From IMG/VR virus record IMGVR_UViG_3300049617_000275, positions 64,001-108,371 of that record: DNA of 44,371 nucleotides; one strand, 5' to 3'. Source of the stretch: a virus. The notes beneath the pieces are model-generated. The model was not told where the DNA came from and made no database searches. It saw only the letters and a list, made by a program, of their open reading frames with translations. The translations under genes and the position numbers were made by a program. Shown piece by piece: positions 3,173 to 24,136 of the stretch (within the stretch, counting starts at the first letter, position 1; every line of letters starts with the position of its first letter).

Positions 3173-4372
3173 TTACTCCTTTTTCAGACTTTCTACGAGC
3201 ACTCTTTTCCAATCTTTCCCGTCTAACCTTGCAAACAATACTCCCGGCTCTACTACCGACTGAGATTTAAGAGCTTCCCGAGCATATATCCTTCTGAGTT
3301 CTCTGTTCTGCCCAAATCCTTCTCCGCCGTGGGTTCTGTAGAACCATTCCACAAATCTCTCTTTGGATTCAAGCTCCTGCCGAAGATACAGAGCAAGTTC
3401 GGCAGTTGCGTCCTGTACTTCCTCCGGCAGGAGCTTTATCCAAAAAGAATCCCCTTCGGTTCCTTCTATACTATCATAGAACAGGATATTGTCCAGCACA
3501 AACTCTTTCCTTTTCTCCGGCGTGTTGTAGGAATCAAGGAAGCGGTTGAGTGCCAAATACCACGTAGTCTTGAACTTAAGACGGTAACAGTCCTTGGAGG
3601 AGTATTCGAAAGTTTGGAGAGGGGGCTGAGTAGATTTAGGAAATACTGCAACAAACCCTTCTGTGTTCGATAACTTTTGGGATTCTTTACACAGGAAAGA
3701 TATGCTGTAATCGAAGCTCCGCGGGTGTTTCACCTCCAAAAGCTCTGCAAAGTACTCCAGCATCTCCGGAGTGTAGAATATATCCCCCTCGGCAGCGGAA
3801 CGAATTCCTAAGAGGTAGAGCCCATTCTCTTTGTCCGTGCATCTCATCATAGGATCTTCCGAAATGCGGATCTCGAAACAATACGTATATCCTTCTGCGG
3901 CAGCAAGGTCCAATTTCTCCGGAGGAAGATATTCCCGCGCCTTGTCTATATATATGTTCGTAAACGAGCACTTTGTTGTATAAAGCCACTCCCCGTCTAC
4001 ATTGTTGATACTCAACAAAGATCCATCTATCTTCTCGTACACGACCGGATGAGTATTCCGTTCCTGTTTTACTCTCTTTTCGTAAGCCTCCAGCAAAGCA
4101 GGCTTGTTTTCTTCAACTTCATTGAAGTTAAAGAACTTAGGGAAAGGATTGCATACGCACTCTCCGTCGGACAGTCTATATACGTGACCCCGCGCAGAGT
4201 TAAGAAGAAAGCTGTCCCACTCTGTCTTCTTCCAAAACACTTCTTGGGCGTAGCAAACAACAATATATCTGCCGCAAGGAGAGATACGGGTTTTAACCTT
4301 TCCTTCTGATTCATAGTTATTTATCTTCTGTATGTTTTCTGGAAGAACACCGGCGGTGTTTGTATCTATCAT
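3173..4372 (-). CDS. RNA ligase, T4 Rnl1-like
   Basis: 399 aa, close to T4 RNA ligase 1 (374 aa). Nucleotidyltransferase motif I is EKIDGSLLS with the expected AMP-accepting lysine at residue 114. FEIRISE (motif III/IIIa-like), EGFVAVFP (motif IV) and LKFKTTWYL (motif V, KxK-like) follow in order. Such enzymes join 5'-phosphate and 3'-OH RNA ends using ATP. T4 Rnl1 reseals host tRNA cut by the PrrC anticodon nuclease. The gene lies in a run of overlapping genes with a metallophosphoesterase and a second, unrelated RNA ligase, suggesting an RNA-repair module; no Pnkp-type end-healing enzyme is seen in the window. Confidence 0.88.
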   Translation of the reverse strand: MIDTNTAGVLPENIQKINNYESEGKVKTRISPCGRYIVVCYAQEVFWKKTEWDSFLLNSARGHVYRLSDGECVCNPFPKFFNFNEVEENKPALLEAYEKRVKQERNTHPVVYEKIDGSLLSINNVDGEWLYTTKCSFTNIYIDKAREYLPPEKLDLAAAEGYTYCFEIRISEDPMMRCTDKENGLYLLGIRSAAEGDIFYTPEMLEYFAELLEVKHPRSFDYSISFLCKESQKLSNTEGFVAVFPKSTQPPLQTFEYSSKDCYRLKFKTTWYLALNRFLDSYNTPEKRKEFVLDNILFYDSIEGTEGDSFWIKLLPEEVQDATAELALYLRQELESKERFVEWFYRTHGGEGFGQNRELRRIYAREALKSQSVVEPGVLFARLDGKDWKRVLVESLKKE

Positions 4373-5652: not shown

Positions 5653-5918
5653 AAGTCCTCCTGTTCTACAAACATACCGCATGATGCATGTACATCTTCT
5701 CCTACTCTCGGAACTATCTTACATTTAAACCCCCAACCCTGTATACACTCTTGGATATGTTTTACCTCTCTCTCCGACAGCTCAAAAGACAAAGAGTTAG
5801 GAGAGTTGTAGCGGATCCATAGATCCGGTTCTTCCTCTTTGGAATCTCCGCGATAACCCTCCACAAGTTTCTTGTGCTCCCGGAGCCTCTGTTCTATTTC
5901 TTCTAGGTAGCTCAGCAT
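5646..5918 (-). CDS. Hypothetical protein, 90 aa
   Basis: Unrecognised. The N-terminal third is a predicted charged helix (YLEEIEQRLREHKKL); the C-terminal half has three Cys. ATG at 5918 overlaps the ligase stop (TGATG), and its stop overlaps the phosphoesterase start, so it is co-translated with the RNA-repair-like genes. Confidence 0.65.
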   Translation of the reverse strand: MLSYLEEIEQRLREHKKLVEGYRGDSKEEEPDLWIRYNSPNSLSFELSEREVKHIQECIQGWGFKCKIVPRVGEDVHASCGMFVEQEDLC

Positions 5919-7009
5919 CAGTGAAACTCCGTGTTGCCCTTTTGAAGGAGATATTCTTTGTTGATAGCCCGGAGTATCTTACGGGGAAGAAAAGGAGTTG
6001 ACTCCTCTCCGGAGGACCGGAGAACAATTCCCTCTTTTATGGGTTGGTCTCCTAGAGCGGAAGGGCCTTGTCGGAGTTTCTCTATAAGCTCCGCAGAGAA
6101 CTTTACGTTGTCCGCAAGGCAAGGAACTGTCTCTATACTCCTCTCTTTACATATATCAAAGAACTCCCGCGGGGTCAGATACTTTCCGTTTTTCTTTATA
6201 TCAAAAGCAAGAAATGTGGGAACAGAGAATCCGTAAGTATAGTTCTTCTGAATGCCTGGTCCTACGATCTCTCCTGCAAGAATCTCTCCCGGCAAGAGTT
6301 TATCTGCAAGTTTTTGCCGGGTAAACGTATCCCCGTATAGATTGCCGGTGTTTTCTACGTGACAGTTACGGGACGATGTCACAATCTCGTATCGGGTATA
6401 GATACCTATCTTCTGTAAGATACCCCAAAATAAATTGGTCTCTCTCCGCGGAACCTTTGCTAGAAGAGCATTACAACCGTGGAGCTTTTCTGAGACGTTT
6501 ACAAGATCTCCCTCGGAGAATACATTCGGATGTTTTTCGATGTGTTCCAGATCGCAAAACTTGCCCACTAAGGGGTGATGCTTGACCTGTTTCATTCCTT
6601 TCCAGAACTCCGGCGCCGGAGGCTCATACTTGGAGATCCCTAGTATAGCTGTTACATCGTCTCCGGCTCTCTTTCCTGCAAGATCCGGGTAAAAAGCAAG
6701 AAGTTCTGGATCTATGGCAATGACCATACCTTGACTGTAAACTCCGCGAATCTTCGCGGTTTTGACCCTGCTCTTCGAGAGAGTTACTTTGCTTCCCGGA
6801 GGAAAGAGGATGGTTTCTAGTTTATCCGGAAGAACGGAGTCTATAGGAATGTAAATACACTCTCCGCCGACTCCGAATCTATGTAAGCCTGTCGGAGTTT
6901 TGGAGGTTATGCAGTGCCACCCATCTACCTGTACGATGGATAGCCTATCTGCATTGGGATGGTCGACCGCGGAGGCAATACGGGATATCTTTACACTGAG
7001 TTCACTCAA
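5918..7009 (-). CDS. RNA ligase, DRB0094 (Rnl5) family
   Basis: 363 aa. The N-terminal ~110 residues match the OB-like domain of this family (a HPNADRL segment, then VDGW, then IPIDSVLP). The nucleotidyltransferase domain carries motif I EKLHGCN with the adenylated Lys at about residue 175, then GEIVG and FLAFDIK (motif IIIa region) and KEGIVLR (motif IV). Deinococcus DraRnl of this family seals 3'-OH/5'-phosphate nicks with ATP. TTG at 7009 is taken as start: AAGGAGAG lies 5 nt upstream and it overlaps the previous TGA as TTGA. A longer in-frame version would run back into the neighbour. Two RNA ligases of different families so close together is unusual. Confidence 0.87.
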   Translation of the reverse strand: MSELSVKISRIASAVDHPNADRLSIVQVDGWHCITSKTPTGLHRFGVGGECIYIPIDSVLPDKLETILFPPGSKVTLSKSRVKTAKIRGVYSQGMVIAIDPELLAFYPDLAGKRAGDDVTAILGISKYEPPAPEFWKGMKQVKHHPLVGKFCDLEHIEKHPNVFSEGDLVNVSEKLHGCNALLAKVPRRETNLFWGILQKIGIYTRYEIVTSSRNCHVENTGNLYGDTFTRQKLADKLLPGEILAGEIVGPGIQKNYTYGFSVPTFLAFDIKKNGKYLTPREFFDICKERSIETVPCLADNVKFSAELIEKLRQGPSALGDQPIKEGIVLRSSGEESTPFLPRKILRAINKEYLLQKGNTEFH

Positions 7010-7407
7010 TTTATCTCTCCTTCTGAAGGCTCCAGCGCGGAGTAAGTTTCTATGAAGTAATCTATATAGTCTGACACTGCTTGAGCCAGCTCCGGCGATC
7101 CGTACTTCGTATGCATATATCTGTCTCTTATTGGTCCAGTCCATCCGCAAGGATAATAAAGGAAATCCCTCAGAGGGTAAAAATGCCCAAGATATTCTAC
7201 TATGATACCATCTATACCCAGGAGTTTTTCCGCTTCTTCAGGGATGTCAAAATTGCGGGCCTTATTTCCCTCCAAAATGCAGGCCCATCCCGCAATACAG
7301 GCTACTGTTCCGCAGTCTTCGTCTTGACCTCTCCAGCAATCCATAACCACTCTCTTTGGATCTTCTAGAATATGGGACTGGATTCGACGGAACAATTCTA
7401 TATTCAT
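7006..7407 (-). CDS. Hypothetical protein with CGTxACIAGWA motif, 133 aa
   Basis: ATG at 7407 has GGAG upstream and overlaps the previous stop. Contains CGTVACIAGWAC, a segment I recognise from an unnamed small-protein family found in phages and bacteria; the N-terminal pattern (IQSHILEDPKRVVMDCW) also fits that family. Function unknown. A related core recurs more loosely in the genes at 24355, 24689 and 26244. Confidence 0.7.
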   Translation of the reverse strand: MNIELFRRIQSHILEDPKRVVMDCWRGQDEDCGTVACIAGWACILEGNKARNFDIPEEAEKLLGIDGIIVEYLGHFYPLRDFLYYPCGWTGPIRDRYMHTKYGSPELAQAVSDYIDYFIETYSALEPSEGEIN

Positions 7408-9026: not shown

Positions 9027-9041
9027 TTTACTTCACCTCTT

Positions 9042-9128
9042 TGAATAGTGGGATTCAAACCCACGCAGCTACTTAAATTCCACCTTCGCATTAGCAAATG
9101 CGACACCTTTGACTCAGCCACCTATCCA
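9042..9128 (-). tRNA. tRNA-Ser-like gene (anticodon GCU), aberrant
   Basis: Minus-strand cloverleaf in normal order: acceptor TGGATAG pairs with CTATTCA (7 bp, one G-U), T-loop TTTGAAT closed by TGGG/CCCA, and a long variable region (about 22 nt) as in class II tRNA-Ser. The anticodon stem TCGCA/TGCGA closes an 8-nt loop reading TTTGCTAA, one base longer than the canonical 7; GCU follows a proper U33 and precedes AA. The T-stem has only 4 bp, the D-arm lacks the usual GG, and no CCA is encoded. Could be a divergent functional tRNA or a decaying one. Confidence 0.6.
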
Positions 9129-21059: not shown

Positions 21060-21090
21060 CTCCCGGCGGAGTTGGAGAACACACCTCCAA
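21058..21090 (-). promoter_or_regulatory. Two tandem hairpins upstream of the recA promoter
   Basis: Perfect 6-bp inverted repeats AACTCC/GGAGTT (loop of 4, 21058-21073) and TTGGAG/CTCCAA (loop of 7, 21072-21090) abut each other. The first covers the edge of the -35 box, so an operator or DNA-structure role is possible. Confidence 0.55.
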
Positions 21091-21123
21091 AAGCGAAAGC
21101 GCCACATAGCCGGTGGCGCTTTC
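21088..21123 (-). terminator. Rho-independent terminator after the tRNA-like units
   Basis: An 11-bp perfect stem (GAAAGCGCCAC / GTGGCGCTTTC), 7-nt loop, then GCTTTT. Ends the leftward transcript carrying the two permuted tRNA-like units. Confidence 0.9.
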
Positions 21124-21159: not shown

Positions 21160-21298
21160 TAAGGGTAACGGCGTTTAATCCAAAGAATCAGATCTGTGCC
21201 AAGCTATTTTTCCGTTAAACTACCTTTCGAATTGGCCGAAAGGGCGAGAATCGAACTCGCATCTTCAGGAATTTTCTTTGGAGCTGGAGATACCCTTA
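21160..21298 (-). tRNA. Circularly permuted tRNA-like unit 2
   Basis: On the minus strand the 3' part comes first: T-arm GCGAG-TTCGATT-CTCGC (21260-21244), then acceptor CCTTTCG (21243-21237), then GCCA and ATT. The matching 5' part follows: acceptor CGAAAGG (21229-21223), TA, and D-arm GTTT...AAAT with AACGG loop (21220-21206). The acceptor halves pair perfectly (7 bp) but in inverted order. The flanks are also complementary: TTCTTTGGA with TCCAAAGAA (21179-21187 / 21274-21282) and TACCCTTA with TAAGGGTA (21160-21167 / 21291-21298). This would bring the outer ends together where an anticodon arm should be. I cannot identify the anticodon. Confidence 0.65.
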
Positions 21299-21346
21299 TC
21301 TGTGTTCTTGAAACTAGAGGAGATAGATTGAACTTTGTTTGAACTC

Positions 21347-21419
21347 CGGGCTGCCTTTACCGTTTGGCTACCGAGCCCTAAATGACTCGGGTGGGATTCG
21401 AACCGCACAAATTTACCCG
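21347..21419 (-). tRNA. Circularly permuted tRNA-like unit 1
   Basis: Minus strand, inverted order: CGGGT (21419-21415), a short variable stretch, T-arm with loop TTCGAAT closed by CCCAC (21408-21391, one bulged base), acceptor CCGAGTC (21390-21384), A-TTTAG linker, then acceptor GGCTCGG (21377-21371), TA, D-arm GCC-AAACGGTAAA-GGC (21368-21353), A26, and GCCCG (21351-21347). GGCTCGG pairs with CCGAGTC (7 bp, one G-U), and GCCCG with CGGGT as the anticodon stem (5 bp). A full cloverleaf forms only if the outer ends are joined. The anticodon loop is not obvious; U33 is not found at the expected place. Confidence 0.68.
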
Positions 21420-21480
21420 TTATTCTTCAACTTCTGCTTTTAGCTTCAGCTTATCCTCTTCGGATACTTTGTTTACGGGA

Positions 21481-22230
21481 TTACTCCGCGAGGAGGAACT
21501 TGAATAAGTCCTCTCCTATTTTTCTGTTTGGAACCTCTGCGAGGTTCGCTCTTTCTCGAGCACTCTTTACCGCATCGGACAGGGCGTTTGCTTTTTCCAA
21601 GAGTGCAGCTTTCCTATCTGCTGACATAGCTCCGGACAGCTTTACTGTCTCCCAGTGCCCTGCAATTACATCCCGTGTAATCACCTGGGCTTGTCCCGGA
21701 TGTTCCGGAGTAGGGGAGATAAGTACAAGACTTTCCTGAACCTTGTTCGTGCGGTGAGTCCGAATAGGAGCTGTTCGGTGGACAGCAGTATTACCCTGTT
21801 CTACATTCCAATCCTCCGCCGGGTCTAGGACAGGAAGTTTGGAAACAAACGTTCTCCAGTTATTCATCTCTTTCTCTAAAGAAAGAAGAGTGGTTGCCGG
21901 GAGGTCTGTTACTACACATGTCCCGTCTGCAAGGATGATGTCGGCTCGGGCTACGCAGTTTCCTGCGTCCTTGGCTGTCTCTACGTCTATTGTCTCTACG
22001 GTAGCCTTTACAGCGCTACGCAGCACATCTGCAACCGTAGCCTGGACTTTCCTGTTTTCAGGAGGAAATTGCTCCCCGTCGTCTGACAGAGGAAGATACT
22101 TGCGGCTCAAGCCGTTAAAAAGATCTGGCTTTTGGGTGAGGTGGTGGAGTTTGGAAATCTCTTCGTTGTTACGGGACTTTACTCCCTTTTCCATGGCAAC
22201 TACTTCGTGCAATCTACGGGTTTTTGACAT
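21481..22230 (-). CDS. Conserved phage protein (DUF7873-like)
   Basis: 249 aa from ATG 22230 (CCGGAG 7 nt upstream). Matches a conserved family I know from many phages: MSKTRRLHEVVAMEKGVKSR, an LTQKPDLFNGLSRKY segment, a KLPVLDPAEDWN segment, APIRTHRTNKV, and a helical C-terminus. The DUF number is from memory. Function not established. After its stop the +1 frame stays open for about 20 codons into the tRNA-like segment (ending LKLKAEVEE). Confidence 0.75.
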   Translation of the reverse strand: MSKTRRLHEVVAMEKGVKSRNNEEISKLHHLTQKPDLFNGLSRKYLPLSDDGEQFPPENRKVQATVADVLRSAVKATVETIDVETAKDAGNCVARADIILADGTCVVTDLPATTLLSLEKEMNNWRTFVSKLPVLDPAEDWNVEQGNTAVHRTAPIRTHRTNKVQESLVLISPTPEHPGQAQVITRDVIAGHWETVKLSGAMSADRKAALLEKANALSDAVKSARERANLAEVPNRKIGEDLFKFLLAE

Positions 22231-22323
22231 ATTGTTTCTCCGGCAGGTGTTAAACTTGAATTTCTCTGTAGGAATACAGGATAACACAGAAGAAGGAATG
22301 TGTCAGCTCCCGCTGGGAGTTCT

Positions 22324-24065: not shown

Positions 24066-24136
24066 CGCTACCTCACGGAATCGAACCGTGCATAACTACC
24101 CACACGGCAGACGGTCTACCCTTTACCTAAGGCAGC
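24066..24136 (-). tRNA. tRNA-like gene, possible tRNA-Thr(UGU), aberrant
   Basis: Normal order on the minus strand: acceptor GCTGCCT pairs with AGGTAGC (7 bp), D-arm GGT...ACC, T-arm CACGG-TTCGATT-CCGTG. 71 nt in all, no CCA encoded. Anticodon arm TCTGC-CGTGTGG-GTAGT would give UGU but with G instead of U33; a shifted pairing gives a 5-nt loop. Position 37 is G. It may be non-functional in decoding. Confidence 0.6.

What the first reader, a model, noticed from the sequence alone, without database searches (positions are those of the whole stretch)
21160..21420. Two tandem circularly permuted tRNA-like units in a phage genome
Seen directly: twice in a row on the minus strand, a T-arm plus 3' acceptor strand is followed within 6-7 nt by the matching 5' acceptor strand plus D-arm (7-bp acceptor pairing each time: CCGAGTC/GGCTCGG and CCTTTCG/CGAAAGG). 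Unit 1 also has a 5-bp anticodon stem formed by its outer ends; unit 2 has 8- and 9-bp complementary flanks at its outer ends and an encoded GCCA. Permuted tRNAs are known from red algae and archaea, where BHB endonuclease and ligation remake them; bacteria lack that enzyme. If transcribed, circularisation followed by RNase P cutting at the acceptor linker would yield a tRNA-like RNA. No normal anticodon loop is identifiable.
Basis: partly seen in the sequence, partly recalled or inferred. Interest (0 to 1): 0.92.

Follow-up and report, generated by a model that had tools for sequence, protein, structure and literature searches.

The report
Paired tRNA-mimicking Y RNAs in phage
A phage genome carries two neighbouring small-RNA genes whose parts are those of a tRNA in rotated order, which is the known layout of bacterial "Y RNAs" (tRNA mimics that normally partner the Ro60/Rsr protein), although no Ro60 gene was found in this phage record.

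Summary
Two minus-strand units (T arm, 3' acceptor strand, 6-7 nt linker, 5' acceptor strand, D arm) lie in the intergenic gap 21480-21033. Shuffled windows give about 0.01 such strict unit per window, and none of 200 gave an adjacent pair.

The novelty is mostly explained. This order is the anatomy of YrlA, the tRNA-mimicking bacterial Y RNA. Rfam YrlA is the only RNA family that ranks both units (25.6 and 14.1 bits). My detector finds the same units directly beside rsr/Ro60 (TROVE) genes in four IMG/VR phages, mycobacteriophage LinStu, a mycobacterial prophage and an Anaerolineales chromosome. These genuine rsr-linked units also miss Rfam's cut-off and score 50-61 bits with a model built from other phages; the window units score 53.8 and 40.9. 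Nothing requires circularisation, and neither unit has an anticodon loop. So: YrlA-like Y RNAs, probably a stable tRNA-shaped RNP or decoy. The partner is unknown, because no Rsr was found in the 108-kb record.

A by-product may be more novel: a large phage class with a CAGCAA stem motif, often a complete but split anticodon arm, and almost never Rsr.

The parts
21347..21419 (-). Unit 1 (upstream, YrlA-like): inner 5-bp stem CGGGT/GCCCG enclosing T arm, permuted acceptor stem and D arm
   Evidence: Sequence; fold recovers acceptor, D arm and inner stem, z -2.2; R1 model 40.9 bits; Rfam YrlA 14.1 bits
21371..21390 (-). Unit 1 permuted acceptor stem CCGAGTC - ATTTAG - GGCTCGG
   Evidence: 7/7 pairing
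21391..21408 (-). Unit 1 T arm with TTCGAAT loop and one bulged C
21353..21368 (-). Unit 1 D arm GCC-AAACGGTAAA-GGC
21160..21298 (-). Unit 2 (downstream, YrlA-like) including nested Y-type basal stem TAAGGGTA/TACCCTTA and TCCAAAGAA/TTCTTTGGA
   Evidence: Rfam YrlA 25.6 bits, full length 1-114, E 1.4e-4 in the 108-kb record; R1 53.8 bits; nested stems 0/2000 shuffles
21223..21243 (-). Unit 2 permuted acceptor stem CCTTTCG - GCCAATT - CGAAAGG
   Evidence: 7/7 Watson-Crick
21244..21260 (-). Unit 2 T arm GCGAG-TTCGATT-CTCGC
21206..21220 (-). Unit 2 weak D arm GTTT-AACGGAA-AAAT
21287..21295 (-). GGGTATCTC, similar to the GGNTAYC motif in the 5' stem strand of rsr-linked units; weak evidence (6.8% chance per 60 nt, motif defined after the fact)
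21089..21122 (-). Terminator-like hairpin AAAGCGCCAC-CGGCTAT-GTGGCGCTTT followed by CGCTTTT, just after unit 2
   Evidence: read; not listed by the consensus scan
21481..22287 (-). Upstream gene, DUF7873 protein (unknown function)
   Evidence: Pfam PF25283, 278.7 bits
19821..21032 (-). Downstream gene, RecA/UvsX-like recombinase
   Evidence: Pfam PF00154, PHROG 97

Best explanation
The two units are genes for YrlA-type Y RNAs, small non-coding RNAs that mimic a tRNA. Each RNA starts and ends in a basal stem that sits where a tRNA has its anticodon stem; the acceptor stem is closed by a short loop, so the tRNA elbow (D and T arms) and the acceptor helix form without free tRNA ends. They are probably made as one minus-strand transcript from or behind the DUF7873 gene, ending at the hairpin near 21122-21089. 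By analogy with YrlA, the tRNA-like head recruits a tRNA- or RNA-handling partner (an exonuclease such as PNPase, a tRNA-modifying enzyme or a tRNA-cutting nuclease) while the stem binds an Rsr/Ro60-like ring protein. No such protein is found in the phage record, so a host Rsr, an unrecognised phage protein, or a stand-alone decoy role is required. Shown: the anatomy, its non-randomness, and identity of layout with rsr-linked Y RNAs. Inferred: transcription, partner and function.
For: YrlA is the only Rfam family that ranks both units. Rsr-linked controls: units of the same layout sit directly upstream of TROVE (Ro60) genes in L125, L126, L127 and L128 and in mycobacteriophage LinStu and prophage prophiGD43A-5; four units lie downstream of rsr in an Anaerolineales chromosome. 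Scores: controls outside the training set get 50-61 bits with model R1 and 26-43 bits with Rfam YrlA, all below Rfam's gathering 69; the window units get 53.8 and 40.9 with R1, which was built without them. Unit 2 has a Y-type nested basal stem, and unit 1 a 5-bp stem at the anticodon-stem position, as in YrlA. Tandem arrangement is common in phages. Literature: YrlA has a basal stem plus D, T and acceptor arms and tethers Rsr to PNPase (PMC8394870); Y RNAs are reported in mycobacteriophages (PMC12282133).
Against: No Rsr/TROVE gene in the 108-kb record with Pfam or with an Rsr profile made here; the second search had no built-in positive control, and the record may be incomplete. Unit 1 scores only 14.1 bits with YrlA, has a bulged T stem, and its longer basal stem is not significant by the nested-helix test (491/2000), though its 31 flank-bridging pairs are high (3% of shuffles). 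R1 also gives ordinary tandem tRNAs 24-41 bits, so R1 alone would not exclude tRNA pairs; the 7/7 acceptor pairing and absence of tRNAs do. No close relative of this phage was found, so covariation could not be tested in direct orthologues.
Confidence: 0.78

Rival explanations
1. True permuted tRNA genes: the RNA is circularised (perhaps by the phage's own RNA ligases) and cut at the acceptor linker to give a working tRNA.
For: Cloverleaf parts are present in rotated order; unit 2's linker begins GCCA (discriminator plus CCA); the phage encodes two RNA ligases at 5918-7150 and 3173-4372; many related phage units have a complete split anticodon arm.
Against: The window units lack a usable anticodon loop: unit 1 has no U33 and unit 2 no anticodon stem. 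The same layout is the ordinary form of rsr-linked Y RNAs. Most linkers of related units lack CCA. Phage RNA ligases have a well-known alternative role in tRNA repair.
Confidence: 0.07
2. Rsr-independent tRNA decoys: the RNAs act alone as tRNA mimics that occupy host tRNA nucleases, modification enzymes or RNA decay factors during infection.
For: No Rsr in this record nor in nearly all records carrying the related CAGCAA class (0 of 11 and 1 of 37). A competitive-inhibitor role of YrlA against an anticodon nuclease was proposed in PMC7790460.
Against: The window units lack the CAGCAA motif; unit 2 has a weak rsr-class motif. No direct functional evidence.
Confidence: 0.3
3. Relics of a broken tRNA array: the 3' half of one tRNA gene fused to the 5' half of the next by deletion.
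For: Phages carry tRNA arrays, and junctions of tandem tRNAs look superficially alike (R1 24-41 bits).
Against: Both acceptor stems pair 7/7, which unrelated halves would not do twice; unit 2 has nested basal helices (0/2000 shuffles).
Confidence: 0.03
4. Chance assembly of tRNA-like motifs in an intergenic gap.
For: Such motifs are short; unit 1's T stem is bulged and unit 2's D stem is weak.
Against: About 0.01 strict units expected per shuffled window against 2 observed side by side; R1 E-values 4e-15 and 5e-11.
Confidence: 0.01

Closest known systems
YrlA bacterial Y RNAs (Rfam RF02553; Chen 2014; Wang 2018, PDB 6CU1)
   Same: Order of elements (basal stem, T arm, closed acceptor stem, D arm, basal stem), tRNA elbow sequences, presence in phages
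   Different: No rsr gene found in the record; Rfam score below the curated cut-off (also true of the rsr-linked controls); unit 1's basal stem is poorly defined
rsr-linked Y RNAs of mycobacteriophages (LinStu/Bxz1 type, prophiGD43A-5)
   Same: Same permuted module found by the same detector; R1 scores of the same order
   Different: There the units lie directly upstream of a Ro-like protein gene; here they lie upstream of a UvsX-like gene
CAGCAA-class phage permuted units
   Same: Same permuted module, usually no TROVE gene in the record, often in tRNA-rich phages
   Different: The window units lack the CAGCAA motif and the split anticodon arm
Permuted tRNA genes of red algae and archaea
   Same: 3' half precedes 5' half, joined through the acceptor end
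   Different: Those carry a real anticodon and are processed to tRNAs; neither is shown here
T4 RNA C and RNA D
   Same: A tandem pair of stable phage RNAs of similar size
   Different: Not permuted: RNA D has no T loop and RNA C has a T arm at its 3' end only

Membership tests
YrlA Y RNA | tRNA-like module with T arm, D arm and acceptor stem closed by a loop, in permuted order | tested here: met
   Both units
YrlA Y RNA | 5' and 3' ends paired in a basal stem | tested here: inconclusive
   Unit 2 met (0/2000 shuffles); unit 1 has a 5-bp inner stem only, longer stem not significant by that test
YrlA Y RNA | Rfam RF02553 score at or above gathering (69 bits) | tested here: not met
   25.6 and 14.1 bits; but rsr-linked controls also fail with 26-43 bits, so the threshold does not discriminate in phages
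YrlA Y RNA | Gene linked to rsr/Ro60 (TROVE) | tested here: not met
   No TROVE in the 108-kb record; the record may be a fragment, and linkage is common rather than obligatory
YrlA Y RNA | Binds an Rsr/Ro60 protein | not testable with these tools
   Needs pull-down or binding assay
Permuted tRNA gene | Complete cloverleaf with anticodon arm after rotation | tested here: not met
   No 5-bp anticodon stem with a U33 loop in either unit
Permuted tRNA gene | Circular intermediate and mature tRNA | not testable with these tools
   Needs RNA-seq of infected cells
Canonical tRNA | 5' half before 3' half, detectable by tRNA models | tested here: not met

The most novel reading that the evidence does not exclude
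The window pair belongs to a broad family of phage-encoded RNAs built as permuted tRNA cloverleafs that work without Ro60. A CAGCAA-marked class with an outer helix that varies in sequence yet stays paired, and often a complete anticodon arm split in its 5' strand, is common in large tRNA-rich phages and almost never accompanied by a TROVE gene. These RNAs would be tRNA decoys, or split tRNAs, with a partner yet to be found.
Probability: 0.25. Interest if true: 0.85.

Novelty: new member of a known kind. Interest (0 to 1): 0.42.

Why it matters
It explains a striking pattern without a new splicing chemistry: rotated tRNA halves in phages are Y RNAs. It also shows that Y RNAs occur as pairs in phages with no detectable Ro60, so either host Ro60 is used or the RNAs act alone. 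Curated Rfam thresholds miss even the rsr-linked phage Y RNAs, and a simple permuted-tRNA detector recovers over a hundred units. These can be compared and tested in phage-host pairs, notably for protection against tRNA-cutting defences.

Tried and rejected
Close relatives of the phage: none by DNA or by the RecA-like protein in IMG/VR; DUF7873 gave one distant locus. An exact pattern for unit 1's acceptor gave one locus, L238, which I did not analyse separately.

T4 RNA C/D as possible homologues: rejected on sequence.

R1 as a stand-alone classifier: rejected, because tandem tRNAs score 24-41 bits.

Un-permuting units and calling them with ARAGORN: uninformative, since shuffled anticodon regions were called nearly as often (153 of 163).

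Constrained minimum-energy folds of flanks gave mixed results for many units and were not used as main evidence.

A hidden Rsr among unannotated proteins: ten ORFs scanned, none TROVE/vWA.

Named phages carrying the CAGCAA class: two 2.5-kb regions and one 121-nt composite query gave no hits.

Primary YrlA papers (PMC4201824, PMC6047535, PMC6281776) are not held, so statements on them rest on citing papers or memory.

Full report
What is there. On the minus strand, in the gap between a DUF7873 gene (ends 21481) and a RecA/UvsX-like gene (starts 21032), two units follow each other 147 nt apart. Each has a T arm, the 3' acceptor strand, a 6-7 nt linker, the matching 5' acceptor strand, TA, and a D arm with GG in its loop. 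Unit 1 has a 7-pair acceptor stem and a 5-bp stem GCCCG/CGGGT exactly at the anticodon-stem position. Unit 2 has a 7-pair acceptor stem and two nested flanking helices of 8 and 9 bp. A terminator-like hairpin follows at 21122-21089. No tRNA is called on either unit.

More than chance. A mechanical detector (T-loop motif and stem, 7-nt acceptor complement, short linker, D arm) finds exactly these two units in the window. In 200 dinucleotide shuffles it finds 0.175 loose hits per window, 2 strict hits in all, and no adjacent pair. Unit 2's nested helices were not matched in 2000 flank shuffles; unit 1's longer stem was not significant in that test, although in a constrained fold its flank-bridging pairs exceeded 97% of shuffles.

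What it is. The order basal stem, T arm, closed acceptor stem, D arm, basal stem is that of YrlA, the tRNA-like bacterial Y RNA: a 90-150 nt RNA with a basal stem that binds Rsr (Ro60) and a head with D, T and acceptor arms, which tethers PNPase (PMC8394870). In the search of 701 bases against 4227 Rfam families, YrlA ranks first (unit 2, full length, 25.6 bits) and also matches unit 1 (14.1 bits). In the whole 108-kb record the E-values are 1.4e-4 and 0.28. Both are below Rfam's cut-off of 69.

Test of that identification. A pattern scan of IMG/VR followed by the detector gave about 25 non-tRNA permuted units in other phages, often in pairs. Their T, acceptor and D helices covary strongly, although they were selected for acceptor pairing. 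Five of 14 of these phage records encode TROVE proteins. In the four where units were re-found in the fetched neighbourhood, they lie within about 0.7 kb upstream of the TROVE gene on the same strand (L125-L128). Independent controls agree. Mycobacteriophage LinStu has one unit just upstream of its Ro-like gene; prophage prophiGD43A-5 has three, one overlapping an annotated tRNA-Thr; and an Anaerolineales chromosome has four downstream of rsr. These rsr-linked units score 26-43 bits with Rfam YrlA and 50-61 bits with R1, a model built from 21 phage units excluding both the window and these controls. The window units score 53.8 and 40.9 with R1. A caution: R1 gives ordinary tandem tRNAs in T4 24-41 bits, so it supports but does not by itself prove the assignment. 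The acceptor complementarity and the lack of any tRNA do the rest.

Why not a permuted tRNA gene. After rotation, unit 1's anticodon loop would lack U33, and unit 2 has no anticodon stem. The layout is what Y RNAs normally look like, with no circularisation step. The phage does encode RNA ligases, so circularisation cannot be excluded, but nothing points to it.

Partner. No TROVE gene is found in the 108-kb record by Pfam or by a profile of five phage Rsr proteins, nor among ten further ORFs. The profile search had no positive control among its targets, and the record may be a fragment. The mechanism is therefore open between a host Rsr, an unrecognised phage protein and a stand-alone tRNA decoy. 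PMC7790460 proposed, as a possibility, that YrlA inhibits an anticodon nuclease competitively.

By-product. The phage units fall into at least two classes by the motif next to the outer helix. GGNTAYC-type units are found mainly in records with TROVE genes (10 of 15 records). Units with CAGCAA had none (0 of 12 records in the first set, two of them duplicates). A targeted scan gave 114 CAGCAA units in 95 records, each with an outer helix beside the motif; this set was selected for the motif, and the helix finder was permissive. In 37 mostly large records from that scan only one had a TROVE gene, in a GC-rich phage whose unit looks atypical. In 98 units the outer helix differs in sequence and stays paired, but pairing was again a selection criterion. 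In 50 of 97 CAGCAA units, and 9 of 15 of the other class, a complete anticodon arm (5 bp, 7-nt loop, U33, purine 37) can be assembled across the break, against 1.75 and 0.5 with shuffled flanks and 26.7 and 5.45 with mismatched 3' parts. I regard this as a lead, defined after the fact. The window units show neither the motif nor the split anticodon arm clearly.

Verdict. Real feature, correctly seen; its most exciting reading is not needed. It is a pair of YrlA-like Y RNAs in a phage without a detected Ro60.

Noticed in passing
IMG/VR loci such as L101, L114, L118, L173, L191, L242, L244, L279 (98 units listed): A common phage class of permuted tRNA-like units with an outer helix, then CAGCAA in the 5' strand, often a complete anticodon arm split near position 28/29, and almost never a TROVE gene in the same record (0 of 11 and 1 of 37). 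Not found in Rfam at gathering level in the loci tested.
   Followed up: partly
L352 1424-1502 (prophage prophiGD43A-5): The annotated tRNA-Thr overlaps the first of three permuted Y-RNA-like units just upstream of the Ro-like protein gene, so it is probably a misannotated Y RNA.
   Followed up: partly
window 9041-9128, minus strand: Looks like a complete tRNA-Ser (GCU anticodon, long variable arm, 7-bp acceptor) that ARAGORN and the Rfam tRNA search did not report.
   Followed up: no
window 24066-24136, minus strand: ARAGORN calls a tRNA-Thr (TGT) that the Rfam tRNA model does not confirm in this record.
   Followed up: no
window 5918-7150 and 3173-4372, minus strand: Two RNA ligase-like genes (PHROG 968/PF09414, and an Rnl1-like PHROG 562), suggesting tRNA repair capacity.
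   Followed up: no
L114 5852-6477 and L014 8971-9618: ROOL RNAs lie in the same tRNA-rich regions as permuted units in two phages.
   Followed up: no
L088 8566-8658: A 497-kb phage record carries a match to bacterial small SRP RNA (57.7 bits) next to a pair of permuted units.
   Followed up: no
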